Shown here: positions 3,061 through 28,050 of the stretch, piece by piece
Layout of the letters: every line of letters begins with the position of its first letter
How positions within the stretch are numbered: position 1 is the stretch's first letter
IMG/VR virus record: IMGVR_UViG_3300042478_001897
Coordinates: 1 to 28,156 of that record
DNA from: a virus
Direction: 5' to 3' (one strand)
Length of the DNA: 28,156 bases
Translations under genes and position numbers: made by a program
The notes under the pieces: model-generated
What the model saw: only the letters and a program-made list of their open reading frames with translations
Databases searched by the model: none
Told to the model about the DNA's origin: nothing

Positions 3061-3517
3061 GTCGGCACTCCTGGTGGCAGGCCGCGTACCCAGCGATGTC
3101 GATGGCAGCGTCGTCGGTGGCTTGGCCGGTGCCCAGCTGGCGGGCGATCTTGTCGAGCACCATGACGAGAGCCCAGTCGGCCGGCGTGAACGTCGTGTTG
3201 AACGCCGCGTTCACCAGCGACGCCGTCCTGGCGAAATGCTCCGTAGGTGGCCCGTACTTGCCGTGCCGGTCTCGGATCGTGGCGATTGCGTCACGCAGCG
3301 TCTGCTCAGCCGGCGAGACCGGGCGAAACCCCGGCTCCCACTCGGCGTAGGTCTCGCTCAGGACCGAGTCGTGTTGCGTTTCCTCGGAACTTGCGACAAT
3401 GTGCCTAGGTTCTGTCGCCCGCGGCGCCACCTTGTGGTCATCGGCTGGCGTGGCGTCGATCCGCTCGCGGACGGCTGCCCGTAGTGCGGCGTTGGATTCG
3501 TCGAGTGTCGTTGTCAT
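3053..3517 (-). CDS. DUF6378-like phage protein (154 aa)
   Basis: The C-terminal 85 residues match the pattern I know as DUF6378: ATIRDRHGKYGPPTEHFART, then FTPADWALVMVLDKIARQLG, then DDAAIDIAGYAACHQE. The helical layout with D/E and K clusters resembles all-alpha nucleotide pyrophosphohydrolases (MazG-like), so a nucleotide-pool role is possible but unproven. Residues 1-70 look disordered and are not part of the domain. The ATG at 3517 has GAGGAG five bases upstream. The gene overlaps the end of the metallophosphoesterase gene by 80 bases, so their products are probably made together. Confidence 0.75.
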   Translation of the reverse strand: MTTTLDESNAALRAAVRERIDATPADDHKVAPRATEPRHIVASSEETQHDSVLSETYAEWEPGFRPVSPAEQTLRDAIATIRDRHGKYGPPTEHFARTASLVNAAFNTTFTPADWALVMVLDKIARQLGTGQATDDAAIDIAGYAACHQECRRA

Positions 3518-4589
3518 GCTTGCTCCTCAGGTCGCCGTCGCAAAACAGCGGGTAGGCCTTGGTCACTTCGTTCCGGCCGTGGTCGATCACGACGAGTCCT
3601 TGGCATGGGCGGTCGTGAGCGCCGGCCTTGATGAACACAGAGTACGCGGAGTGTCCAATCACCGAGCCGTTGCTGACGTACCGCCCGCCACGCAGCCAGC
3701 CCCACGTGTGGTAGTGGCCGAAGATCGTCAGGTCCGCCCGCCGGCTGGCGTCCCATGCCGCGATGGCCTTGGTGGCCGGCAGGGCCAGACCGTAGACCCC
3801 CTGCGAGTAGCGGATGCTGTGACCGTGGGTGGTCCGCAGCACGAACCCGTCGAGGTCCACGTAGCCGAGGTGACCGGATGCAATCTGCCACTCCACGTTC
3901 GGGTTCCGCTCCTCACGCTGGAGTGTGTGGTAGAGCATCTGCTCCCAAGAATGATCCAGTTCGGTGGCGATGCGGAGTTTCTCGGTGGACCGTCCGTGAT
4001 TGCCGGCGTTTGTGCAGACGACGACTGAATCCACGTTCGCAGCGATAGCGTCGATCATGCCCCGCAGCCGCGTGCCGATCCACCGCGTCGCGTTCGGCGG
4101 CGAGAGTTGTGCCACCTCGACGCAGTCGGGGTGAATGTGGCCCGTGATAAAATCGCCGCCCAGCCAGACCACGATGCGTCGGATGTCGGCCAAGTGCCGT
4201 TCGTGGTCGAGCATGGCGAACAGCCGCATCTCCAGTTCGGCGAGGCGTCGCTCGCACACCTCCAGTGAGTAGTCGTTTGCTCCGTTGACGGTGGCCGGGT
4301 CCACGCGCTCCTCGCAGTGAACGTCCGACAGCATGAACACCATCGTCGCGGCGTGCCGCTTCGACGGCTTGCGGCGCCCGGCGGGCCGGCGTGCCGGCGG
4401 CGTCAGGCCGCGCAGCGTGGTCAGCGAGTCGGCCCGCTCCCGCTCGCGGTCGATCTGCGCGAGCGCCGCCCTGTAGCGGCCTTTCAGGCTTGCCACCTCG
4501 GACCGCAGCCGGGCGAGTTCGGCGTCGGACGCCAGCCGCTGCTCGTCAGCGGCTCGGTCGGTGACGGCATCGGCAAGTGGTTTTTTCAT
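3438..4589 (-). CDS. Calcineurin-like metallophosphoesterase (383 aa)
   Basis: All motifs of the calcineurin-like phosphoesterase fold are visible: DVH (Asp89, His91), GGDF (Asp146), AGNH (196-198), THGHS (His255, His257) and GHYH (291-294). These bind two metals and hydrolyse phosphoesters. The usual GNHD/E is GNHG here, so substrate preference may differ. Residues 16-58 form a predicted coiled coil (ELARLRSEVASLKGRYRAAL), an addition not needed for catalysis. The start at 4589 overlaps the preceding stop as ATGA. The last 26 or so residues lie in an 80-base overlap with the next gene and are basic and low-complexity. It may process DNA or nucleotides in infection. The substrate is unknown. 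Confidence 0.88.
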   Translation of the reverse strand: MKKPLADAVTDRAADEQRLASDAELARLRSEVASLKGRYRAALAQIDRERERADSLTTLRGLTPPARRPAGRRKPSKRHAATMVFMLSDVHCEERVDPATVNGANDYSLEVCERRLAELEMRLFAMLDHERHLADIRRIVVWLGGDFITGHIHPDCVEVAQLSPPNATRWIGTRLRGMIDAIAANVDSVVVCTNAGNHGRSTEKLRIATELDHSWEQMLYHTLQREERNPNVEWQIASGHLGYVDLDGFVLRTTHGHSIRYSQGVYGLALPATKAIAAWDASRRADLTIFGHYHTWGWLRGGRYVSNGSVIGHSAYSVFIKAGAHDRPCQGLVVIDHGRNEVTKAYPLFCDGDLRSKHDNDTRRIQRRTTGSRPRADRRHASR

Positions 4590-4843
4590 GACTGCCCCAG
4601 CCACATACAGAGGACGGATTCGCCTGCCGTGGTCCAGCCACGTGCCTTGGCCTCGGCGATCAAGGCACGGGCGTAGGCGGTTTTCTGGTGGCGTGTGTGG
4701 TCGAACCGCCGCCGCGCCTCAAGGAACTCGGCCTGTGCCTCGGCGGGCAGTTTGTGGAACCAACTGGTGTAGCCGGGCCGCTGGTTCTGCACTGCCGTTT
4801 CAACGGCGTCCGCTAGGCTTCCGATTGCCTTGGTCTTTGCCAC
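4586..4843 (-). CDS. Small phage protein of unknown function (85 aa)
   Basis: Starting at GTG 4843 behind a strong GGAGGAG, the protein reads VAKTKAIGSLADAVETAVQN and contains GYTSWFHKLPAEAQAEFLEARRRF followed by RALIAEAKARGWTTAGESVLCMWLG. The last part looks like a helix-turn-helix or short helical hairpin. Similar small helical proteins occur in phage late regions, but I cannot name the family. It overlaps the upstream gene by 44 bases and is coupled by ATGA to the metallophosphoesterase gene. It could be a DNA-binding adaptor; this is inference. Confidence 0.65.
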   Translation of the reverse strand: MAKTKAIGSLADAVETAVQNQRPGYTSWFHKLPAEAQAEFLEARRRFDHTRHQKTAYARALIAEAKARGWTTAGESVLCMWLGQS

Positions 4844-19518: not shown

Positions 19519-20494
19519 GCTGCCTCAGGTAGTCGCGGAACGAAGCGGCCCGGCTGACGACGGCGAGCCGCCTGGAGCGGAACGCGTCGAACGACCGCTT
19601 GGCAACGGCCGCGTCGGAGTCGGGGTAAGCAGGAAACGTGACCGGGCCGACGTCGATCAGCGAGTCGATCTTCGTCACCGTGCGGATCGACCGGCCTTCC
19701 TCCACGCTCCACGCCTCACCGCCGGGGGCGATCTGAAACGAGAACGAACTGCCGCGCACGATGCCCGCTTCGATGTTGGCGGCGAGGTCGCGGCCGTACG
19801 TCGTGTTCGGCACCGGAAACTCGTACCGCAGGCCGACTTCGTCCACGTTCATCCGCAGCGTGCCGGGGTAGCGGGCGAGGGGGAAATTGGCATCATGGTT
19901 CCAGAGCGCCCGCGTCTCCAGCGGCTTTTTGCGGCCGCGCCGCTCGGACACGATGCCGAACGCGTCGGGGTGAATTCGCTCTTGGAAATCACCGAGGTCG
20001 AGGCTGTTGACCCCGAACTTGGCCGCATAGCCGACGATCCACTGCGACTCGGCGGCACCGTCCGCGGCCCGCGATTCGATGCGGAGCAGCGGCAGCGTGC
20101 CGTTCTCCTCCTCGTACAGGCTGCGACGTTCAACGGCCATGCTGCGGTTCTCCTCGTCTGCGGCGTTCATCTGTTCCACCAGTTTGCGACTCCAAGCCCA
20201 GCCGGGATCGCTGCCCCACAAGGCCCACGCGATCCGGCCGTTGCTCGGAAACCCATCCTCGCCGGGCGACCATCCCTCGCCCTGCTTATCGACTTCGTGC
20301 CGGTCGAAGTACGCCTTCATGCGGCGTGCCGTCTCCGGGCTGATGTTCACTCCGTTCGACAGGTCGCGACCGCGGGCGACGCCGACTTCCGTGCCGCCGC
20401 GGCCGTACTCGCTTCGCCAGTCGAGTCCCTTCTGTGCTTCGGCTCGCACGCCGGCCGGCGGCGTGAAGTCGATGTGGTCATACCGTGCCGCCAT
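19508..20494 (-). CDS. Prohead protease (HK97 family, U35) with N-terminal domain (328 aa)
   Basis: Residues 125-300 form the prohead protease: VGYAAKFGVNSLDLGDFQERIHPDAF, then LWNHDANFPLAR with His200, then GIVRGSSFSFQI with Ser249/250, then SLIDVGPVTFPAYPDS with Asp281 where many relatives have Glu. These fit the His-Ser-acid protease that cleaves the capsid delta domain. Residues 1-115 form a separate domain (DFTPPAGVRAEAQKGLDWRS; YFDRHEVDKQGEGWSPGEDG; GRIAWALWGSDPG) known from some phage head proteins but of unclear role. An internal Met119 could start a short protease-only form. The ATG at 20494 overlaps the portal end by 17 bases. Confidence 0.88.
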   Translation of the reverse strand: MAARYDHIDFTPPAGVRAEAQKGLDWRSEYGRGGTEVGVARGRDLSNGVNISPETARRMKAYFDRHEVDKQGEGWSPGEDGFPSNGRIAWALWGSDPGWAWSRKLVEQMNAADEENRSMAVERRSLYEEENGTLPLLRIESRAADGAAESQWIVGYAAKFGVNSLDLGDFQERIHPDAFGIVSERRGRKKPLETRALWNHDANFPLARYPGTLRMNVDEVGLRYEFPVPNTTYGRDLAANIEAGIVRGSSFSFQIAPGGEAWSVEEGRSIRTVTKIDSLIDVGPVTFPAYPDSDAAVAKRSFDAFRSRRLAVVSRAASFRDYLRQHGR

Positions 20495-22328
20495 CGCTGC
20501 CCTTTCGCTTGCGTCTCGGCTTGGCGTACTTGCGGACGAACTGCGGCGAGTCGTCCACCCACACGTCCACGGTGACACCGGCCGCCTTGGCGGCGTCGTC
20601 CTTGAGCGTGTCGCCGACGAGCAGCACCCGACTGAACGCGTCGGCGTACTCGCCCAGTGTGTCGGCCACGGTCTGCCGGTCGTCGGCCGTATCTGGCCGA
20701 CGGCTGACCATGACCACCGTGTTCCCGTCCGATACCGCCTTGCGGGCAAACTCGCCCCACAGGGCCGGGTCGGCCGCGAACGTCCGGTCGAAGTCGATTG
20801 AGATCGTCATGGCCCGCGACTCGGGCTGCGAGCGTGCTGGCGGCGGCGGCACTGGTACCGGCGACGCCGGCTCGGGCACGCCCGCAAGGATCGCATCGAC
20901 CTGCGGCCGCGGAATGAACGGGAAGGCTGCCGCGACCGCTGCAGCGGCACCGCTCTTGGTAAAGACGCCTGTGCTGACAGCCTGCAGGATCGCGAGCAGC
21001 CCCGTGATTTGTGATCCGTTGAGCGACACGTCTGCCGCCTGCGGCTCGCCGGGGGCCGCGTCGGTCGGCACCGCCGCGGCGGTCGGCTCGGTAGCCGGCG
21101 TCTCCAGCGTCGCAGTCGGCTCAGGTAGCGAGGCCGCCCGGTCGAGCGTCGTCATGTTGAGTTGCACGAACCGCGTGTCGCCGGCCTCCACCGGGTCGAG
21201 GTTTTCCCACGACCGGATTTCGTTGATGCTCGCCACGCCGAGATTCCAGAGCGTCTGGTAGTACGACGCGCGGGCCGTGGCGTCGCCACGCAGCAGGCCG
21301 CGTACGTCGAACTCGGCGAACAGAGAATCGTCCGTGATGAGGTCGCGGGCAAACGCCGACTCGAACCGACGCAGCCAGCCGAGCAGCGTGTTCTGGAGGT
21401 AGTCGAGGCTCTGCTGCTCGATGTTGGAAAACGACGAGCGGGTCAGGTCGCCGACAAGGTGCGGCGGGCACCCGTAGATGCGGCAGATTTCCTCGACGGA
21501 AAACCGCCGCGTCTCCAGAAACTGCGACTCTTGATTCGTGCCGCCGAACTCCACAGGCTTGAGGCCGTTGGTCAGTACCGCCGTCCGGTTGCTCCGGTCC
21601 GGTCCGCGATGCACCCGCTCCCAGTTTTCGCGGAGCGAGCGGGCCGTCTCCGGGTCGATCATGTTGTCGGTGGCGAGGACCACGCCGGGCCGTGCCCCGT
21701 TGGCGAAGAACGACGCCCCGTGAATCTCGCACGCCCGAGCAAGCCCGATGGCGTCGCGGGCCAGTTCCACCGGCACCATGCCGTTGACGCCGTCGTCGGA
21801 CAGCCACCGCAGGTGCATGATCTGGTCTTGCGTGTAGACCGTCTCGGCCCCGGTTTCTTCGCGGTACTTATACCGCAGCCGCCCGTTCTCGATCCGCTCG
21901 GGCTTCATGCGGCTCGGGTGCAGAGCGATCAACTCCGACGCGAAGCCGGCAGCCCCGGCCCGCATCTCGACGTAGGCGTTGCCGTGCAGGCAGAGGTGCA
22001 TCATCAACTGCTCGCGCCACTCAAAACTCGTCTGCCAGCCGTTCGGCGTGGCGTGCAGCAGGCGGTAGAGCGGATGCTCGCGGGCGATCGTCTTGCCGCC
22101 GTCAGCCTGCCGCCGGTAGAGGTGCAGCGGCAGTCCCGCCACCGAGGTCGCCAGCACGCGGACGCACGCCAGCACGACGGTCGAACGCATCGCCGTCTCG
22201 GAGTCGACCCGCACGCCGGCAGGGTTGCGGGCGCTGCCGCCGAACGATCCGCCTTCGTAGTCCCAGTGCCGCGACTCCGCGTCACCGGACGGAAGCCAGA
22301 GGATTCGCGGGTTGGCGTCTGCGATCAT
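20478..22328 (-). CDS. Portal protein with C-terminal HAD-like phosphatase domain (616 aa)
   Basis: Residues 1-400 match the HK97-type portal: AMRSTVVLACVRVLATSVAG, NAYVEMRAGA, RFSVEEICRIYGCPPHLVGD and SNIEQQSLDYLQNTLLGWLR. A linker and helical segment (LNGSQITGLLAILQAVSTGV) lead to residues 507-616, which have HAD phosphatase features: TISIDFDRTF (Asp512, Asp514), a Ser in VMVSRRPD (542) and VDVWVDDSPQ (Asp592/593). Such enzymes act on phosphate esters. The Met507 codon at 20810 could start a separate protein, but upstream there is no good ribosome binding site, so a true fusion is more likely. The gene starts 3 bases after the terminase stop. Confidence 0.85.
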   Translation of the reverse strand: MIADANPRILWLPSGDAESRHWDYEGGSFGGSARNPAGVRVDSETAMRSTVVLACVRVLATSVAGLPLHLYRRQADGGKTIAREHPLYRLLHATPNGWQTSFEWREQLMMHLCLHGNAYVEMRAGAAGFASELIALHPSRMKPERIENGRLRYKYREETGAETVYTQDQIMHLRWLSDDGVNGMVPVELARDAIGLARACEIHGASFFANGARPGVVLATDNMIDPETARSLRENWERVHRGPDRSNRTAVLTNGLKPVEFGGTNQESQFLETRRFSVEEICRIYGCPPHLVGDLTRSSFSNIEQQSLDYLQNTLLGWLRRFESAFARDLITDDSLFAEFDVRGLLRGDATARASYYQTLWNLGVASINEIRSWENLDPVEAGDTRFVQLNMTTLDRAASLPEPTATLETPATEPTAAAVPTDAAPGEPQAADVSLNGSQITGLLAILQAVSTGVFTKSGAAAAVAAAFPFIPRPQVDAILAGVPEPASPVPVPPPPARSQPESRAMTISIDFDRTFAADPALWGEFARKAVSDGNTVVMVSRRPDTADDRQTVADTLGEYADAFSRVLLVGDTLKDDAAKAAGVTVDVWVDDSPQFVRKYAKPRRKRKGSDGGTV

Positions 22329-22331
22329 GGG

Positions 22332-23945
22332 TCAGATGATGAAGATTTCGGGGGCTTGTTCTTGAGGCTTTTTCGCAGCGTGGATGCCGACCGCCATCGT
22401 CAGGGCCACGATGCCGTCGATCCGCTCACTTTTTCCGTATTCCGGCTTGATCGGTTTGATGTTCCCTGCGGCGTCCATCTTCACGCTGACGTTGCCGGCC
22501 ATCCATCCGAGGATTTTGTTACCGCCGTGCCGGAGCTTCCCCGATGCGATGAGGTTTTCCAGTTGCTTCGCGGCTGGGCTCATGCTGGCGTAGCCCTGTC
22601 CAAAACCTACAACGTCGAGCCCGTCCCCTTGCAGTTGCAGGGAAAGTTGCGTGGCGTTCCACCGGTCGATGGCAATCTGCCGCACGTTGTATTGCTTGGA
22701 AAACTGAACAATGTCCCGGCGGATCACGTCGAAGTCCGTCACGTTCCCGCCCGTCATAGTCAGGCCGGTGGACGCGTCTTTCGCCCACGACACGTACGGC
22801 ACGCGGTCCTTCCGCTCCCGCTCCTGTGCGTTGTCCCCCGGAATCCAGAACCGACACAGAACGTCGTAGGTGCCGTCGGGGGCGGGGAACACCGCGACGA
22901 ACGCCGAGGTGTCGTAGGTGGTCGCAAGGTCGAGGCCGCACCAGCACTCCCGCCGGTCGAGCGGGCCGGGCGGCTCTGAGTCGCAAGCGTCCCACGCCTC
23001 CATGCGAATCCAGCGCGTGTCCTGCTGCGTCCACTGGTTGAGTCGGTAGCGGCGGAACGAGTTTTCTTTCGTGTTGGAAAGTTGGGCCTCGCGGCAGTCG
23101 GCGGCGAAGTCCTCCGGTTTGATTGTCACGCCCCACGACGGATTCGCCTTGGGCCACGTGGCCTCGGCTGTCCATTCGTCCGATTCCTCGGCCTCGTAGA
23201 TGCACGGAAAGAACGTCGGGTCATGCGTCCAATCCCGCAGCACGGCGCGAGCGTAGTTGTACTGCTCCCAGCAGATTGAGTTGCGGTCGTAACCAGCCGT
23301 CGTCACCGACACAAGGAGCGGCTGCTCTCGGGCCGCGCCGCCGTAGCGAAGCGAGTCCCATAAACGGCGGTCGCGTTGAGCGTGCAACTCGTCGAATAAG
23401 AGGGCATGAATATTGAGCCCTTCCGCCCTGAAGGCATCCGCGCTGAGTACCCTGTAAAACGCCGCCTCCTTGCGGTAGGCGATCGTGCGGCGGGAGTCGA
23501 TGACTTCCAGCACGCGGGAGAGTTGCGGCGACGCCCGCACCATCGACGCCATTTCCCTGTAGACCAACGAGGCTTGCTCACGGTCCGCAGCCGCCCCGTA
23601 GACTTCCGCCCCGTTTTCCCCGTCCATGACGAGCAGATAGAGACCGATGCCCGCGAGGAGCGTTGACTTCCCCTGCTTCTTCCCCGTGGAGATGTAGGCC
23701 ACGCGATAGCGGCGGGTATCGTCGGCGAGTCGCTTCCAACCAAACAACTCGCCGATCATCACCGTCTGCCACTCAAGCAGGGCAAACGGCTGGCCCGCGT
23801 GCTTCCCCTTGCTGTGCCGCAGCCAGCCCTCGAAAAAGTTCACGGCGTGCTGCGCGGCTTCAGGGTCAAAGTAGTAGTCAAGCCCCAGGCGTGCGGCGTC
23901 GCTTCGCAGCGTAGGCGGCAACCGGGTCTGCTTCTTCACTGCCAT
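22332..23945 (-). CDS. terL: Terminase large subunit (537 aa)
   Basis: This is the packaging motor and nuclease. The ATPase has Walker A STGKKQGKST (86-95), Walker B ALLFDELHA (181-189) and a coupling segment SVTTAG (213-218). The RNase H-like nuclease has GLDLATTYD (337-345), IAIDRWNAT (424-432) and a final acidic ERIDGIVALTMA. Length is usual for the Terminase_1 (HK97/P27-associated) type. The ATG at 23945 follows AGGTGAG and lies 68 bases inside the small subunit gene, a longer overlap than normal but supported by the full N-terminal domain. It works with the small subunit and portal to fill the prohead. Confidence 0.95.
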   Translation of the reverse strand: MAVKKQTRLPPTLRSDAARLGLDYYFDPEAAQHAVNFFEGWLRHSKGKHAGQPFALLEWQTVMIGELFGWKRLADDTRRYRVAYISTGKKQGKSTLLAGIGLYLLVMDGENGAEVYGAAADREQASLVYREMASMVRASPQLSRVLEVIDSRRTIAYRKEAAFYRVLSADAFRAEGLNIHALLFDELHAQRDRRLWDSLRYGGAAREQPLLVSVTTAGYDRNSICWEQYNYARAVLRDWTHDPTFFPCIYEAEESDEWTAEATWPKANPSWGVTIKPEDFAADCREAQLSNTKENSFRRYRLNQWTQQDTRWIRMEAWDACDSEPPGPLDRRECWCGLDLATTYDTSAFVAVFPAPDGTYDVLCRFWIPGDNAQERERKDRVPYVSWAKDASTGLTMTGGNVTDFDVIRRDIVQFSKQYNVRQIAIDRWNATQLSLQLQGDGLDVVGFGQGYASMSPAAKQLENLIASGKLRHGGNKILGWMAGNVSVKMDAAGNIKPIKPEYGKSERIDGIVALTMAVGIHAAKKPQEQAPEIFII

Positions 23946-24405
23946 GCGTGCTCACCTGTGACCGGCTGCTTGGCGTCATGCCGAAGTCTTGCTGCATCCT
24001 TCGCAGGTCGCCACGCAGCGACCGTTCGTCGACCGACCATGAGTGCGGCTGCGTCCACTTGATCCGCAGCCGTCCGTCCGTGCGGTTCGGATCGGGTTCC
24101 ATCATCACGTTGTCGCGGCCGAACTGCTTGCACTTGTCTCGGGCCTCCAGCCATTTAGACCATGTGTGGCAATAGAGAGCCCACGCGTCGATGTCGGCCT
24201 CGGTGAACACCCGCATCCGCCGCAGCATCGGCACGGTGTCGTTCCACTTCTTCACCGCGACCGGGTCTTCGGCAATCGACTCGGGCGGGTCTAGTTTGTC
24301 GAGCAGGTCGGGCGTCGGCTCGTTCGTCGGCAGCGCCGCCTTCGACGGATTGCCGCGAATGTATTTCAGGATCGACGGTTCGGGTGCGGGGCCGCGTTTG
24401 CCCAT
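23878..24405 (-). CDS. terS: Terminase small subunit, P27 type (175 aa)
   Basis: The start MGKRGPAPEPSILKYIRGNP is a hallmark of P27-family small terminases (MGRRGPKPTP..LRGNP). Later motifs are AEDPVAVKKWNDTVPMLRRMRVFTEADIDAWALYCHTWSKW and SLRGDLRRMQQDFGMTPSSR. It recognises phage DNA and guides the large subunit. The ATG at 24405 was preferred over 24432 because the family begins there and it lies just after the UDP-galactopyranose mutase stop. The end overlaps the large subunit start by 68 bases. Confidence 0.92.
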   Translation of the reverse strand: MGKRGPAPEPSILKYIRGNPSKAALPTNEPTPDLLDKLDPPESIAEDPVAVKKWNDTVPMLRRMRVFTEADIDAWALYCHTWSKWLEARDKCKQFGRDNVMMEPDPNRTDGRLRIKWTQPHSWSVDERSLRGDLRRMQQDFGMTPSSRSQVSTHGSEEADPVAAYAAKRRRTPGA

Positions 24406-24406
24406 G

Positions 24407-25495
24407 TCAGTTCTCCAGTAGCCGTTCGGCAAGTGTCATCGCTCTGCCGATTGCTTGATCCATGTCGTAGTAGCGGTATTCCCCGAGTCTGCCAGCAATC
24501 AGCACCCTTGGCGTCGCGTTAGCGCGGTTCCGGTACTTCTTGTATAGCGAATCGTTGGCCTCATCTGGAAACGGGTACTCGTAATCGGACGGGCTGTCCG
24601 GCGTGAACGGGGTCTCTGTTGTAATCACGGAGCCCTGAATCCGATTGGCGATGTCAGGCTGCATCATGTGCTTCCATTCCAGCGTTCGGATATGCGGCCC
24701 GCCTGCGTGCGTCGGGTTGTTGATCTGCCCGCGACACTGAATGTAGTTCGCGTTGGGGTCGTAGCGATGCTCGCGTCGCTGCCCTCGATACTGGAGGCGG
24801 CCGATGTCAAAACCAAAGAACTCGTCAATCGCCCCCGTGAACACAAGGCATCTTTTCGCTTCAATCTCGCGACTTCGCTCAAGGTAGTCGTAGTTCAGAA
24901 TGACGGGGATGCCGTCGAGCATCCTCCGCGTCCACTCGGCATAGCCGTTGACAGGGATGCCCTGATGCTTTGACTGAGGCTTGAGCCGAGGGTCGTCGTC
25001 TGACCGAACGTCGAAGCGGCTGCACAGCCTTGCGTCAAGAGTTTTGCACAGCACGCCCCATTGCTTCTCGTTGTATTCTCTCACGAACTTGTCGTATACG
25101 ACTCTCGGCATCATCGACAGGGCCGCTTCCTCAAAGTTCACTGGCGTGCCTGCGAACTCAGGTGCCCACGAATCACCGACGTTTCGAGTGATGTAAGACT
25201 GCCCAAGCGGCCACGAAACAAGGTTGCCGTCAACGTCCGATAGCAGCGCGGCCTCGTACCGGAAGAACTCCCCAAATCGCGTGGCCCACTCCCAGATGCG
25301 GTCGCACGACGTGCGAAAGTAGTGCGGCCCGTAGGTGTGGATTCGGATACCCGAACAATGAGCGTGATCGTGGACGTTGCCCCCCATGTGGTTGCGACGA
25401 TCCACGACCAAGACATCGCGGCCAGCGTCGGCCAAAGTGCGGGCTATCACCGCTCCAGTGAGGCCAGAGCCGACTACAAGGTAGTCGACTTTCAT
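24407..25495 (-). CDS. glf: UDP-galactopyranose mutase (362 aa)
   Basis: The protein converts UDP-galactopyranose to UDP-galactofuranose using reduced FAD. The N-terminus is a Rossmann FAD-binding motif (DYLVVGSGLTGAVIARTL), followed by DRRNHMGGNV, IHTYGPHYFRT with the flavin-adjacent His, YNEKQWG and VFTGAIDEFFGF. The substrate-binding arginines lie in HIRTLEWKHM and GRLGEYRYYDMDQAI. Length matches bacterial Glf (about 365). It is coupled by ATGA to the sulfotransferase and lies one base before the small terminase. Phages rarely carry this enzyme; it implies a galactofuranose product made during infection or lysogeny. Confidence 0.93.
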   Translation of the reverse strand: MKVDYLVVGSGLTGAVIARTLADAGRDVLVVDRRNHMGGNVHDHAHCSGIRIHTYGPHYFRTSCDRIWEWATRFGEFFRYEAALLSDVDGNLVSWPLGQSYITRNVGDSWAPEFAGTPVNFEEAALSMMPRVVYDKFVREYNEKQWGVLCKTLDARLCSRFDVRSDDDPRLKPQSKHQGIPVNGYAEWTRRMLDGIPVILNYDYLERSREIEAKRCLVFTGAIDEFFGFDIGRLQYRGQRREHRYDPNANYIQCRGQINNPTHAGGPHIRTLEWKHMMQPDIANRIQGSVITTETPFTPDSPSDYEYPFPDEANDSLYKKYRNRANATPRVLIAGRLGEYRYYDMDQAIGRAMTLAERLLEN

Positions 25496-26343
25496 CGGGG
25501 CTGCCGCCGAGAAATCAAGGCGGTCTTTCGCGACCAGATAGTTTTGCTTCGCTGCAGTATCTCATCTGACGAGATACTGCACGGCGAATCTACGGAGTCA
25601 TAGCCGCCGAGAAAACAGTCGTCAGAGTAGACCGACGCGATGATGTCGGCGGACTCCTTGGAATACTGCTGCTTTGCCGGGAGGGCCATCTTCGCTGTCT
25701 TGTTGTAGAGTTTTGAGTGGCGATTCAGAGGCACGCTGATTCCGATGGCAGCATTCACCGCCGCCCAGTCCTTTTGGACGTGCTCGTACCTACCGACATA
25801 CGAGAACTCTGGAGACACCCACGCCCACTGGTGGGAGGTGAGGAAGAACTTCAACGAGTACGGCTGGGTCATCACGTACCGCGAGTTGCGGAGCATGTGA
25901 ACAAACTCATCAAGCGTCCGGCACCCGTGAGCGAGCGTCTTTTTCCCGTTGGCTTCCCACGCGCTCAGGAGGTTCCAGACCGACAGCACTCTCGTCCACG
26001 GGTTTCGAATGAACGTGAAACTAAACCGCCGACTCATTTCCGCTGGGGGCAGGCACTTGTTCCGCATGAGGGCAGCGACCGGCGTGTGGTTGTGGCAAAC
26101 GGAGACGGTGGAGCCGGGATACTGGAGGTAAAAACTTCTGGCGTGATCTGGCTGGTTGATTCGCACGTAGTCAAGAACGCTCTCAGAAAGAACCCCGTGC
26201 ATACTTTCCGACGCCGTTCTCGGAATCTTCGTGAACAAGAAAGGCTTCGGCCGCTGCCCGCGGCTGCGCGAGAGCATCCTTGCGTTGCGTTGGCCCATCT
26301 GAGCCAGCAGGGTGACGATGCTTTTCTTGGGCCTCCCAGCCAT
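25492..26343 (-). CDS. Sulfotransferase family protein (283 aa)
   Basis: The protein carries the two 3'-phosphoadenosine-5'-phosphosulfate (PAPS) sites of carbohydrate sulfotransferases: KIPRTASESM (39-48) for the 5' phosphosulfate loop and FIRNPWTRVLS (111-121) for the 3' phosphate. His84/His86 in CHNHTP may be part of the acceptor site. The usual C-terminal FLGGYD is followed by about 35 extra residues, encoded partly by a perfect hairpin at 25553-25581. The ATG at 26343 has AAAGGAG eight bases upstream; GTG at 26346 is an alternative. It would place sulfate on a sugar or other hydroxyl. The acceptor is unknown. Confidence 0.85.
   Translation of the reverse strand: MAGRPKKSIVTLLAQMGQRNARMLSRSRGQRPKPFLFTKIPRTASESMHGVLSESVLDYVRINQPDHARSFYLQYPGSTVSVCHNHTPVAALMRNKCLPPAEMSRRFSFTFIRNPWTRVLSVWNLLSAWEANGKKTLAHGCRTLDEFVHMLRNSRYVMTQPYSLKFFLTSHQWAWVSPEFSYVGRYEHVQKDWAAVNAAIGISVPLNRHSKLYNKTAKMALPAKQQYSKESADIIASVYSDDCFLGGYDSVDSPCSISSDEILQRSKTIWSRKTALISRRQPR
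25553..25581. repeat. Perfect 11-bp stem-loop inside the sulfotransferase gene
   Basis: Bases 25553-25563 and 25571-25581 are perfectly complementary, with a 7-base loop. The stem is AT-rich (TGCAGTATCTC). It lies in the C-terminal extension. It has no T-run on the minus strand. Because of its symmetry both strands encode CSISSDEIL in one frame. Confidence 0.6.
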
Positions 26344-27236
26344 CACGCCAGCTCCTTTCGATACTTCTCGTCAACGATCTCGGGGCAGGCGTACTTCCAC
26401 TGAACCATGTGGTGAATGCGACGATGCTTGCCTCCCATCGTGGCAATCTTCACGCACGACGGAGCAACTAGGACTGAGTAGAACGATTTGATGTACGTCC
26501 CCATCTCAAGGTAGATGTCTGTGCATCCACCAGCTTCAGCCTGCGTCTGCGGCTGCCATAGGCGAAGCCTCGGGAGAGTGACGAACAACTCTCCTCGCCT
26601 CCCGCACTCGACGTACAGATTCACATCGTCGTTCACGCGACCGCGGAACGTGACCTTTGCGTCTGACCGGAAGAAGAAGCTGTTCATCGCTTTGCGCGAG
26701 AACCGGCCTTCCTTAGCGAACCTTGCAAAACGCCCCTCTCCGCCGCCGATGAAATCGCCGCCTTGAGCGAAGGCAACTGACGTCGCAGATGAATCGTCCA
26801 GAAAGTTCAAGCAGGCTTCGATAATCGGGTCAAGATTGTGCGTCACAACGTTTGATGTGATGTAGTCACCATCGTTGTTCATCGCCCAACCGAACTGCGA
26901 GTAGTCGTCATCAAGTTGCCAGAAATGAGTCAGGCCAAGCTCACGCGCGATCGCGAAGTTGTAGTTGCGGGCGAACACCACCGAGTTTCGCTTGCCGTAG
27001 TTGTCGCACGCGTCGACCGACTCTGCGACCTTCTTTTTGTCAAAGACGATCACCTCATCGCCGTAGTTGTCGATGTACTTCTGGAGCTGCTCGTCCTCAT
27101 CATCAACGAGCAGATAAATCCTGCCTGTATACCCGCCTTTCTTGAGGGCATGGTACGACATGACACTGTCAGCACGTCCGTGAGTGAGGATGAACGTGGC
27201 AAACTTCCGCGGCTTCGGCTTCTTCTTACTCGGCAT
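26343..27236 (-). CDS. TET-associated glycosyltransferase (TAGT/GREB1-like) (297 aa)
   Basis: The sequence matches the TAGT pattern: FILTHGRADSVMSYHALKKG (15-34), IYLLVDDEDEQ (40-50), THFWQLDDDYSQFG (103-116) with the DDD metal/sugar site, FRGRVNDDVNLYVECGRRGE (197-216), QTQAEAGG, GTYIKSFYSVLVAPSC (246-261) and HRRIHHMVQW (271-280). This family is named for linkage to TET/JBP dioxygenases in phages, where it is predicted to glycosylate oxidised bases, and it is related to the base J glucosyltransferase and human GREB1. ATG 27236 has AAGGAG upstream and overlaps the ParB-like gene by 11 bases. Sampled sequence here is much AT-richer than the structural genes. No dioxygenase is visible in the window, so its acceptor is open. 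Confidence 0.85.
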   Translation of the reverse strand: MPSKKKPKPRKFATFILTHGRADSVMSYHALKKGGYTGRIYLLVDDEDEQLQKYIDNYGDEVIVFDKKKVAESVDACDNYGKRNSVVFARNYNFAIARELGLTHFWQLDDDYSQFGWAMNNDGDYITSNVVTHNLDPIIEACLNFLDDSSATSVAFAQGGDFIGGGEGRFARFAKEGRFSRKAMNSFFFRSDAKVTFRGRVNDDVNLYVECGRRGELFVTLPRLRLWQPQTQAEAGGCTDIYLEMGTYIKSFYSVLVAPSCVKIATMGGKHRRIHHMVQWKYACPEIVDEKYRKELA

Positions 27237-28050
27237 CGACAGTCTCCTTTTCGGCGGAGTACGCTGCGTCGAGTGACTGACTGAGCCGCGTCCAGCCGTT
27301 CTTGATCGCTGCGTCGAGGTCAACGATCACGAGCGCACTGTCCTCCATCAGACGCTGAACGTGTGCACCGGAATGTGCGTAGTAGTTGGCAATCTCTTGG
27401 AAGTTGAACACGACGTGGCGGTATGCGGCAGCGCGGAGGAAGTGCTTGTCGCTTTCTGGCAAGTCGCTCGCGTCGATTGCCTTGAGGAGGTTGCCGCAAT
27501 ACTCGTCGTCGTAGCACTGAGACAACTGAGGCTTGTCTCCGATCGTCGCATACGGAGGCACCTCCACCTTGTCGGTGTAGGGGTTGTTGGGTGAGCCGTC
27601 GCCGTCGTCTTCGGCTTCGGCTGCTTCGGAAAGCGTCTCGTACAGCCCGGCCTGCGCCGCCGTAACGGCCATCATCTGCTGCAACGCCTCGCTCCCCGTG
27701 TCGACGTTGCGGAGCAGTTCGTCCAACTTCGCCGCGTCGCTGTTCGCCATCGCCGCGAGCGGATCAAGCGTGGCAAGAATCTTGTCGGCCTCGGCCTCAT
27801 TCACGTCGAGGATCAGCACCGGCACGTCGCCGTCGCCAAGCGTCTCGGCTCGGAGGTGGCCGTCGATCAGCATCAGCGAGCCGTCGGGGAGTTCGCGGGC
27901 GAGGCAGGCGTCGGCCAGCCCGACTTCGGCCAGCACGCCGCGGAGGGCGTCGGCCTGCGCCTTCGGGTGCGTTCGCCAGTTCTTCGGGTTGGGCCGAAGG
28001 TCGCTGGCAGGGACCATGCGGAGCGATTTGACGCGGTTTCGGATGTTCAT
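27226..28050 (-). CDS. ParB-like protein with a TAGT-associated C-terminal domain (274 aa)
   Basis: Residues 10-95 are a ParB/sulfiredoxin-type domain: VPASDLRPNPKNWRTHPKAQ, then GSLMLIDGHLRAETLGDGDV with GHLRAE in place of the nucleotide-binding GERR box, then EADKILATLDPLAAMA. The C-terminal 90 residues (ESDKHFLRAAAYRHVVFNFQ; ANYYAHSGAHVQRLMEDSAL; VIVDLDAAIKNGW) form a second conserved domain that I recall from ParB-like proteins beside TAGT genes. Some such proteins are nucleases or CTPases; which applies is unknown. The ATG at 28050 has only a weak ribosome binding site (GAAACCCCG). It is the first gene of the cargo operon in the window. Confidence 0.8.
   Translation of the reverse strand: MNIRNRVKSLRMVPASDLRPNPKNWRTHPKAQADALRGVLAEVGLADACLARELPDGSLMLIDGHLRAETLGDGDVPVLILDVNEAEADKILATLDPLAAMANSDAAKLDELLRNVDTGSEALQQMMAVTAAQAGLYETLSEAAEAEDDGDGSPNNPYTDKVEVPPYATIGDKPQLSQCYDDEYCGNLLKAIDASDLPESDKHFLRAAAYRHVVFNFQEIANYYAHSGAHVQRLMEDSALVIVDLDAAIKNGWTRLSQSLDAAYSAEKETVDAE

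What the first reader, a model, noticed from the sequence alone, without database searches (positions are those of the whole stretch)
24407..28050. Candidate phage decoration operon: ParB-like, TAGT glycosyltransferase, sulfotransferase and UDP-galactopyranose mutase
Four consecutive minus-strand genes with 1-11 base overlaps encode a ParB-like protein, a glycosyltransferase of a family tied to DNA base modification, a PAPS sulfotransferase and the enzyme that makes UDP-galactofuranose. They lie directly upstream of the terminase genes. Families are seen from motifs; the joint function is inferred. A coherent reading is a two-step decoration: a furanose or hexose is attached to phage DNA or a virion protein and then sulfated. 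A sulfated sugar on a nucleobase has not, to my knowledge, been described. Modified DNA would explain the placement next to packaging and could protect against restriction. Virion or host-surface decoration is the main alternative.
Basis: partly seen in the sequence, partly recalled or inferred. Interest (0 to 1): 0.82.

Follow-up and report, generated by a model that had tools for sequence, protein, structure and literature searches.

The report
Phage sugar-sulfate DNA decoration cassette
A bacterial virus carries four adjacent genes that together look able to make an unusual five-membered-ring sugar, attach it, probably to the virus's own DNA, and then add sulfate to it; related viruses show that these genes travel together, but the final product has not been measured.

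Summary
Four overlapping minus-strand genes encode a ParB-like protein, a TAGT glycosyltransferase, a PAPS-type sulfotransferase (SULT) and a UDP-galactopyranose mutase (UGM), directly upstream of TerS-TerL-portal-protease-capsid. The association is not chance. The ParB protein's C-terminal domain (in no Pfam family) and TAGT form a near-obligate pair: 143 of 147 TAGT loci, and 78 of 79 further loci found by searching with the domain, the exceptions being cut by contig ends. The four-gene order PARB-TAGT-SULT-UGM recurs in three further divergent phage lineages; other relatives have PARB-TAGT-UGM without SULT. TAGT-UGM pairs recur independently at 30-35% identity, and one other phage cluster combines UGM with ParB, TAGT, a TET dioxygenase and a C5-methyltransferase. 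When the C-terminal domain lacks its ParB part it sits among DNA polymerase, sliding clamp and helicase genes (13 of 16) instead of beside the terminase. This favours DNA as acceptor. The chemistry on DNA is not shown. No TET, C5-methyltransferase or thymidylate-synthase-type enzyme was found in longer relatives or five isolate records with the pair, so the acceptor hydroxyl is unexplained. Best reading: a modular, TET-independent phage DNA glycosylation cassette with a furanose donor and optional sulfation.

The parts
27226..28050 (-). ParB-like protein, 274 aa: N-terminal ParB/Srx-fold domain (about residues 1-105) and C-terminal helical domain (about 156-268) that is the conserved TAGT partner
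   Evidence: phrog_620 full length; Foldseek best hits ParB-CDP/CTP complexes, E 1e-6; C-domain next to TAGT in 143/147 and 78/79 loci; no Pfam hit
26343..27236 (-). TAGT-family glycosyltransferase (GT-A type); acidic triad D109-D110-D111 invariant
   Evidence: PF20691 111 bits, phrog_842; alignment A3; start codon with Shine-Dalgarno
25492..26343 (-). PAPS-dependent sulfotransferase (Sulfotransfer_2 type); invariant KIPRTASES (5'-phosphosulfate loop-like) and FIRNPW.R (3'-phosphate loop-like) motifs
   Evidence: PF03567 29.8 bits, phrog_3347; alignment A1; Foldseek top hits are sulfotransferases but E>0.1 on a weak model
24407..25495 (-). UDP-galactopyranose mutase-like flavoenzyme; W146, R160, R237, R270, Y307, Y342 match catalytic residues of the E. 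coli enzyme; its Y181 is L171 here
   Evidence: PF03275 144 bits; PDB 1i8t E=9e-59 with alignment; below the TIGR00031 equivalog cut-off
23878..24405 (-). terminase small subunit, first gene after the cassette (context)
   Evidence: PF05119 54.7 bits, phrog_83
22332..23945 (-). terminase large subunit (context)
   Evidence: PF20441 and PF03354

Best explanation
This is a late-expressed phage DNA-decoration cassette. The ParB-like protein binds or slides on phage DNA and, through its C-terminal domain, brings TAGT to it. UGM converts UDP-galactopyranose (or a close UDP-hexose) to the furanose form. TAGT transfers that furanose to phage DNA after replication and before packaging. The sulfotransferase then uses host PAPS to sulfate the sugar. 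The product would be a bulky, negatively charged base that hinders restriction or CRISPR nucleases and glucosyl-DNA-specific defences. Shown here: gene families, catalytic motifs, gene order, conserved co-occurrence, and the replication/terminase context switch. Inferred: DNA as acceptor (about 0.6), furanose as the transferred sugar given that (about 0.65), sulfation of that same sugar, and protection as the purpose.
For: (1) ParB C-domain and TAGT are inseparable in viral contigs and in bacterial genomes of many phyla: 143/147, 78/79 in the reverse search. (2) Across window, jlb1, c5, HHTV-2, NTR1 and an Escherichia phage, ParB-C and TAGT are the only genes shared by all; no other is shared by more than two, so the pair is self-contained and its target must be something common to all, such as DNA. 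(3) C-domain fused to ParB: TerL within 4 kb in at least 93/129 and replication genes in 0/134. C-domain alone: replication genes (Pol A, sliding clamp, DnaB/Toprim helicase) in 13/16 (Pfam). (4) Window-type UGM sits directly after TAGT (or SULT) wherever both sides are visible except in jumbo contig L101, against TAGT in only 3 of 49 records with other viral UGMs. TAGT-UGM pairs recur at 30-35% identity in L112 and in Clostridia genome locus L161. (5) The 58-kb phage contig of L109 has C5-methyltransferase, TET, TAGT, ParB and UGM. (6) Confident SULT relatives are found only next to TAGT. (7) Other genes in the same slot fit sugar tailoring: radical SAM, methyltransferase, phosphatase-cytidylyltransferase, second GT, dehydratase. 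(8) T6 TAGT is credited with adding a sugar to glucosylated hmC in DNA (PMC13216743). (9) Phage Atu_ph04, which has a UGM, has DNA resistant to nine restriction enzymes (PMC6630229; UGM).
Against: No enzyme that makes an acceptor hydroxyl on a base was found: no TET (25 contigs), no TS family and no C5-methyltransferase in the longer relatives (up to 53-60 kb) or five isolate records; for TS and C5-methyltransferase the window too. Several records are fragments. TAGT-type domains may act on proteins: RefSeq calls some Escherichia TAGTs 'GREB1-related', and animal GREB1 is reported to glycosylate a protein (own knowledge). SULT is weakly assigned (29.8 bits; no significant PDB match). UGM lacks one conserved Tyr and falls below the equivalog cut-off, so its substrate may differ from UDP-Galp. 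Viral UGMs in general are seldom near TAGT. The replication-gene queries came from C-alone loci and the loci are not independent.
Confidence: 0.4

Rival explanations
1. Protein decoration: ParB-TAGT glycosylates a protein bound to phage DNA (ParB itself, terminase, capsid or a host nucleoid protein), and the sugar is a sulfated furanose on a virion or DNA-binding protein.
For: Late-operon position beside terminase and capsid; no base-hydroxylating enzyme found; RefSeq labels some Escherichia relatives 'GREB1-related', and animal GREB1 is reported as a protein glycosyltransferase (own knowledge).
Against: No other protein is shared by more than two of six viruses that share the pair; C-domain-only versions sit among replication genes; the characterised phage TAGT of T6 is credited with DNA as substrate.
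Confidence: 0.22
2. DNA is glycosylated by ParB-TAGT with the furanose, but the sulfotransferase acts elsewhere (host glycan, small molecule), being an unrelated passenger in the slot.
For: SULT is optional and patchy, at least three gains or losses; most TAGT-UGM loci lack it.
Against: When present it is always exactly between TAGT and UGM in four lineages at 59-66% identity with intact motifs, and no confident relative was found elsewhere in the viral collection.
Confidence: 0.15
3. Host-surface decoration (lysogenic conversion or superinfection exclusion): the four enzymes alter host glycans to block competing phages.
For: UGM and sulfotransferase families also serve surface polysaccharides (own knowledge); viral UGMs are common outside TAGT loci.
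Against: No flippase or lipid-carrier GT among the four genes; location in the head/packaging operon; near-obligate ParB partner; L109-type cluster with TET and C5-methyltransferase.
Confidence: 0.1
4. The genes form no pathway: independent morons accumulated at a cargo slot upstream of terminase.
For: The slot holds varied genes in relatives, and cassette parts have different nearest relatives (TAGT nearest L003, UGM nearest L091).
Against: The slot cargo is biased to sugar and tailoring enzymes; conserved order, tight overlaps, independent TAGT-UGM pairings.
Confidence: 0.08

Closest known systems
TET/JBP-TAGT DNA hypermodification gene clusters of phages (C5-MTase, TET, TAGT, ParB)
   Same: TAGT family glycosyltransferase with a ParB-fold partner; one UGM-bearing cluster (L109 contig) has all of these families.
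   Different: No TET or C5-methyltransferase found here; the ParB carries an extra C-terminal domain that is absent in 5 of 5 TET loci examined.
T6 beta-glucosyl-HMC-alpha-glucosyltransferase (a described TAGT)
   Same: Same Pfam family; reported to act on DNA.
   Different: T6 TAGT adds a second glucose to glucosylated hmC (PMC13216743), whose hydroxymethyl group is made at the nucleotide level; no such enzyme and no first GT found here; the donor is probably a furanose.
RB69-type arabinosyl-cytosine modification
   Same: Phage sugar-nucleotide genes feeding DNA glycosyltransferases; a pentose on cytosine C5 (PMC13390438).
   Different: Acceptor is 5-hydroxycytosine made by a TS-family enzyme; no TS homologue found here, and no sulfotransferase is mentioned there.
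UDP-galactopyranose mutase (Glf)
   Same: Fold and most catalytic residues.
   Different: Below the equivalog cut-off; Y181 to L171; gene neighbours are ParB-TAGT, not polysaccharide genes.

Membership tests
TAGT (PF20691) | score above curated cut-off | tested here: met
   111 bits against 27.5
TAGT (PF20691) | conserved acidic metal-binding triad | tested here: met
   D109-D110-D111 invariant in 13 sequences down to 30% identity
TAGT (PF20691) | transfers a sugar to DNA | not testable with these tools
   needs an assay
TET-TAGT hypermodification cluster | TET/JBP dioxygenase | tested here: not met
   no PF12851 in 25 relatives' contigs; no TET match in any C-domain locus, window relatives included; many records are fragments
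TET-TAGT hypermodification cluster | C5-cytosine methyltransferase | tested here: not met
   no PF00145 in the window, 17 relatives' contigs or five isolate records; controls rang
T-even type hydroxymethyl-base pathway | thymidylate-synthase-family hydroxymethylase | tested here: not met
   no PF00303 in the same 23 records; controls rang
UDP-galactopyranose mutase | GLF domain plus catalytic residues | tested here: met
   PF03275 144 bits; W146, R160, R237, R270, Y307, Y342 (alignment; residue roles from own knowledge)
UDP-galactopyranose mutase | NCBIfam equivalog TIGR00031 cut-off | tested here: not met
   226.5 bits against 303.75
Sulfotransferase family 2 (PF03567) | score above cut-off and PAPS-binding motifs | tested here: met
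   29.8 bits against 22; KIPRTASES and FIRNPW.R invariant in four
Sulfotransferase family 2 (PF03567) | sulfotransferase fold | tested here: inconclusive
   model pLDDT 62; top hits are sulfotransferases but E>0.1
ParB | ParB/Srx N-terminal nucleotide-binding fold | tested here: met
   Foldseek to ParB-CDP 6sdk, E 1e-6
ParB | partition function with ParA and parS | not tested
   no search for ParA or parS was made; none of the window genes given a family is a ParA
Serotype-conversion (Gtr) cassettes | GtrA flippase and GtrB lipid-carrier GT | tested here: not met
   none among the four genes

The most novel reading that the evidence does not exclude
Phages carry a self-sufficient, TET-independent two-protein system (ParB C-domain plus TAGT) that glycosylates DNA without any known base hydroxylase, and in this lineage it installs a sulfated galactofuranose (or related furanose) on a nucleobase, a type of DNA modification not described before to my knowledge.
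Probability: 0.3. Interest if true: 0.92.

Novelty: new variant of a known kind. Interest (0 to 1): 0.72.

Why it matters
If true, it adds furanose and sulfate to the sugars that phages put on DNA and defines a widespread partner domain for TAGT, which bears on what the 'solitary' TAGTs (288 of 753 phage genomes in PMC13216743) do. It would raise a sharp question about how DNA is glycosylated without a known hydroxylase. The pair is common in Escherichia coli prophages (885 of 5,426 complete genomes hold at least 80% of it), so it can be tested in laboratory strains.

Tried and rejected
Nucleotide-level search of phage genomes with the cassette: no match. Sulfotransferase tblastn in isolate phages: none. 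PDB sequence search with the sulfotransferase profile: none significant. PADLOC: nothing relevant, so not a known defence system. UGM as a general marker of DNA modification: rejected, most viral UGMs are not near TAGT. The idea that the C-domain is a metal-dependent hydroxylase: its R-H pair is lost in L112, so it is left open and not claimed. Literature: the key computational paper on TAGT (Iyer 2013) and the phage-TET paper (Burke 2021) are not held, so whether they mention UGM or sulfotransferase could not be checked.

Full report
Observation. The window is a 28,156-base linear virus record. Its right end carries, on the minus strand, ParB-like 27226-28050, TAGT 26343-27236, sulfotransferase 25492-26343 and UGM 24407-25495, overlapping by 11, 1 (or 4) and 4 bases, and then TerS, TerL, portal, S78 protease and capsid. 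The TAGT start at 27236 and the SULT start have clear Shine-Dalgarno sequences. TAGT, SULT and UGM have lower G+C (0.55-0.58) than ParB and the head genes (0.63-0.68), as expected for a mobile cassette.

Core pair. Searching with TAGT gave 80 viral loci and 39 bacterial genome loci over many phyla. In 143 of 147 TAGT loci held by then (overlapping loci included) the C-terminal domain of the ParB protein lies next to TAGT; the other four are cut by contig ends. The reverse search, with the C-domain, gave 79 further loci, 78 with TAGT within 2.5 kb; the exception is cut by its contig end. The domain is helical (model), matches no Pfam family, and keeps Y, E, D and an LVI.D...AI..G-like motif. 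The N-terminal part has the ParB/Srx fold (Foldseek to ParB-CDP). Across the window, Lactobacillus jlb1 and c5, Haloarcula HHTV-2, Nocardia NTR1 and an Escherichia phage, these two genes are the only ones shared by all six; nothing else is shared by more than two (using the stretches held).

UGM and sulfotransferase. Window-type UGM (51-100% identity) lies directly after TAGT, or after SULT, wherever both sides are visible, except in a 186-kb contig where it follows a GT61 (L101). SULT stands between TAGT and UGM in the window and its identical copies, L005, L020/L021 and L093, at 59-66% identity with invariant PAPS-binding-like motifs; no confident relative was found elsewhere in the viral collection. 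Relatives such as L003, L004, L006, L007, L013, L091, L092 and L104-L106 have TAGT-UGM without SULT. On both gene trees SULT needs at least three gains or losses. As a base rate, only 3 of 49 records with other viral UGMs hold any TAGT, two of them related to each other. Independent TAGT-UGM neighbours occur in L112 (30%/32%), in Clostridia genome locus L161 (35%/34%), in a 394-kb phage (G053, TAGT about 2.2 kb from UGM) and in L109. UGM residues equivalent to E. coli W156, R170, R247, R278, Y311 and Y346 are kept; Y181 is Leu (residue roles from own knowledge), so an altered substrate is possible.

Why DNA. First, 190 loci (some overlapping) have the C-domain fused to ParB: TerL lies within 4 kb downstream in at least 93 of 129, and replication genes are near in 0 of 134. 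Eighteen loci have the C-domain alone: 13 of 16 have DNA polymerase A, sliding clamp or DnaB/Toprim-type helicase beside them (Pfam assignments). The replication queries came from such loci, so the contrast is indicative, not a test of independent events. Second, the 58-kb contig of L109 holds C5-methyltransferase, TET, TAGT, ParB and UGM, and the contig of L110 holds C5-methyltransferases, a weak TAGT match, ParB and UGM. Third, T6 TAGT is described as acting on hydroxymethylcytosine DNA, and solitary TAGTs were flagged in 2026 as likely novel transferases (PMC13216743). Fourth, phage Atu_ph04, which carries a UGM, has DNA resistant to nine restriction enzymes (PMC6630229), a correlation only.

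What is missing. TET was absent from 25 relatives' contigs (the family's controls do not ring, but the same search found the L109 TET). Thymidylate-synthase and C5-methyltransferase families were absent from the window, 17 relatives' contigs and five isolate records, two of them small complete Lactobacillus genomes. In the five TET loci examined the ParB lacks the C-domain, and no C-domain locus has TET nearby. So the C-domain system looks like an alternative to the TET route. How the acceptor hydroxyl or amine arises is unknown; protein glycosylation therefore remains a real rival.

Mechanism proposed. ParB C-domain recruits TAGT to DNA; UGM supplies UDP-furanose; TAGT transfers it; SULT sulfates it with host PAPS; decorated DNA is packaged. 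Only the gene-level statements are shown; each chemical step is inferred.

Novelty. Known kind: phage DNA glycosylation by TAGT. New to my knowledge: the near-obligate C-domain partner with its two genomic settings, a furanose-donor enzyme built into the cassette, and an optional sulfotransferase. Two key papers could not be read, so prior mention of these accessory genes is possible.

Noticed in passing
L188, L189, L190, L193, L194, L197, L203, L210, L211, L213, L220, L231 (between C-domain and TAGT); L072, L081; L155, L206, L209, L212 (after TAGT): A histidine-phosphatase fused to a glycerol-3-phosphate-cytidylyltransferase-like domain (or that domain alone) sits in the cassette, suggesting a CDP-activated donor in other lineages.
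   Followed up: partly
L025, L034, L046, L052, L059, L065, L069, L127, L147: Radical SAM enzymes (SPASM-containing in those scanned) adjacent to ParB-TAGT; methyltransferases in L012, L025 and L145; second GT in L074; tandem TAGTs in L127, L132 and L139.
   Followed up: partly
L080, L135, L142, L150, L155, L232, L233, L242, L252: ParB C-domain without its ParB part, beside DNA polymerase A, sliding clamp or helicase genes.
   Followed up: yes
L109 (contig G028) 3242-7683: Phage cluster with TET, TAGT, ParB and UGM, and a C5-methyltransferase elsewhere on the contig; a complete-looking galactofuranosyl-hmC pathway.
   Followed up: partly
L162 9208-10921; L257 8001-9714: E. coli Rac-like prophages (next to trkG) carry ynaK (ParB) plus TAGT; 885 of 5,426 genomes hold at least 80% of it; in ATCC 8739 ynaK is annotated as a pseudogene.
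   Followed up: partly
window 24983-24985 (UGM residue L171): Window-type UGMs have Leu where E. coli UGM has Y181, a possible substrate change.
   Followed up: partly
window 20478-22328: Portal protein has an extra C-terminal HAD-like segment (about residues 505-600) matching phrog_4919/4256 of unknown function; the HAD resemblance is by eye.
   Followed up: no
window 3438-4604: Exonuclease-like protein (phrog_284; weak metallophosphoesterase match) near the tail end of the structural module.
   Followed up: no
L261, L264, L293: Other viral UGMs share a different neighbourhood: ORFs of about 618 and 250 aa on either side of UGM, families not examined.
   Followed up: no
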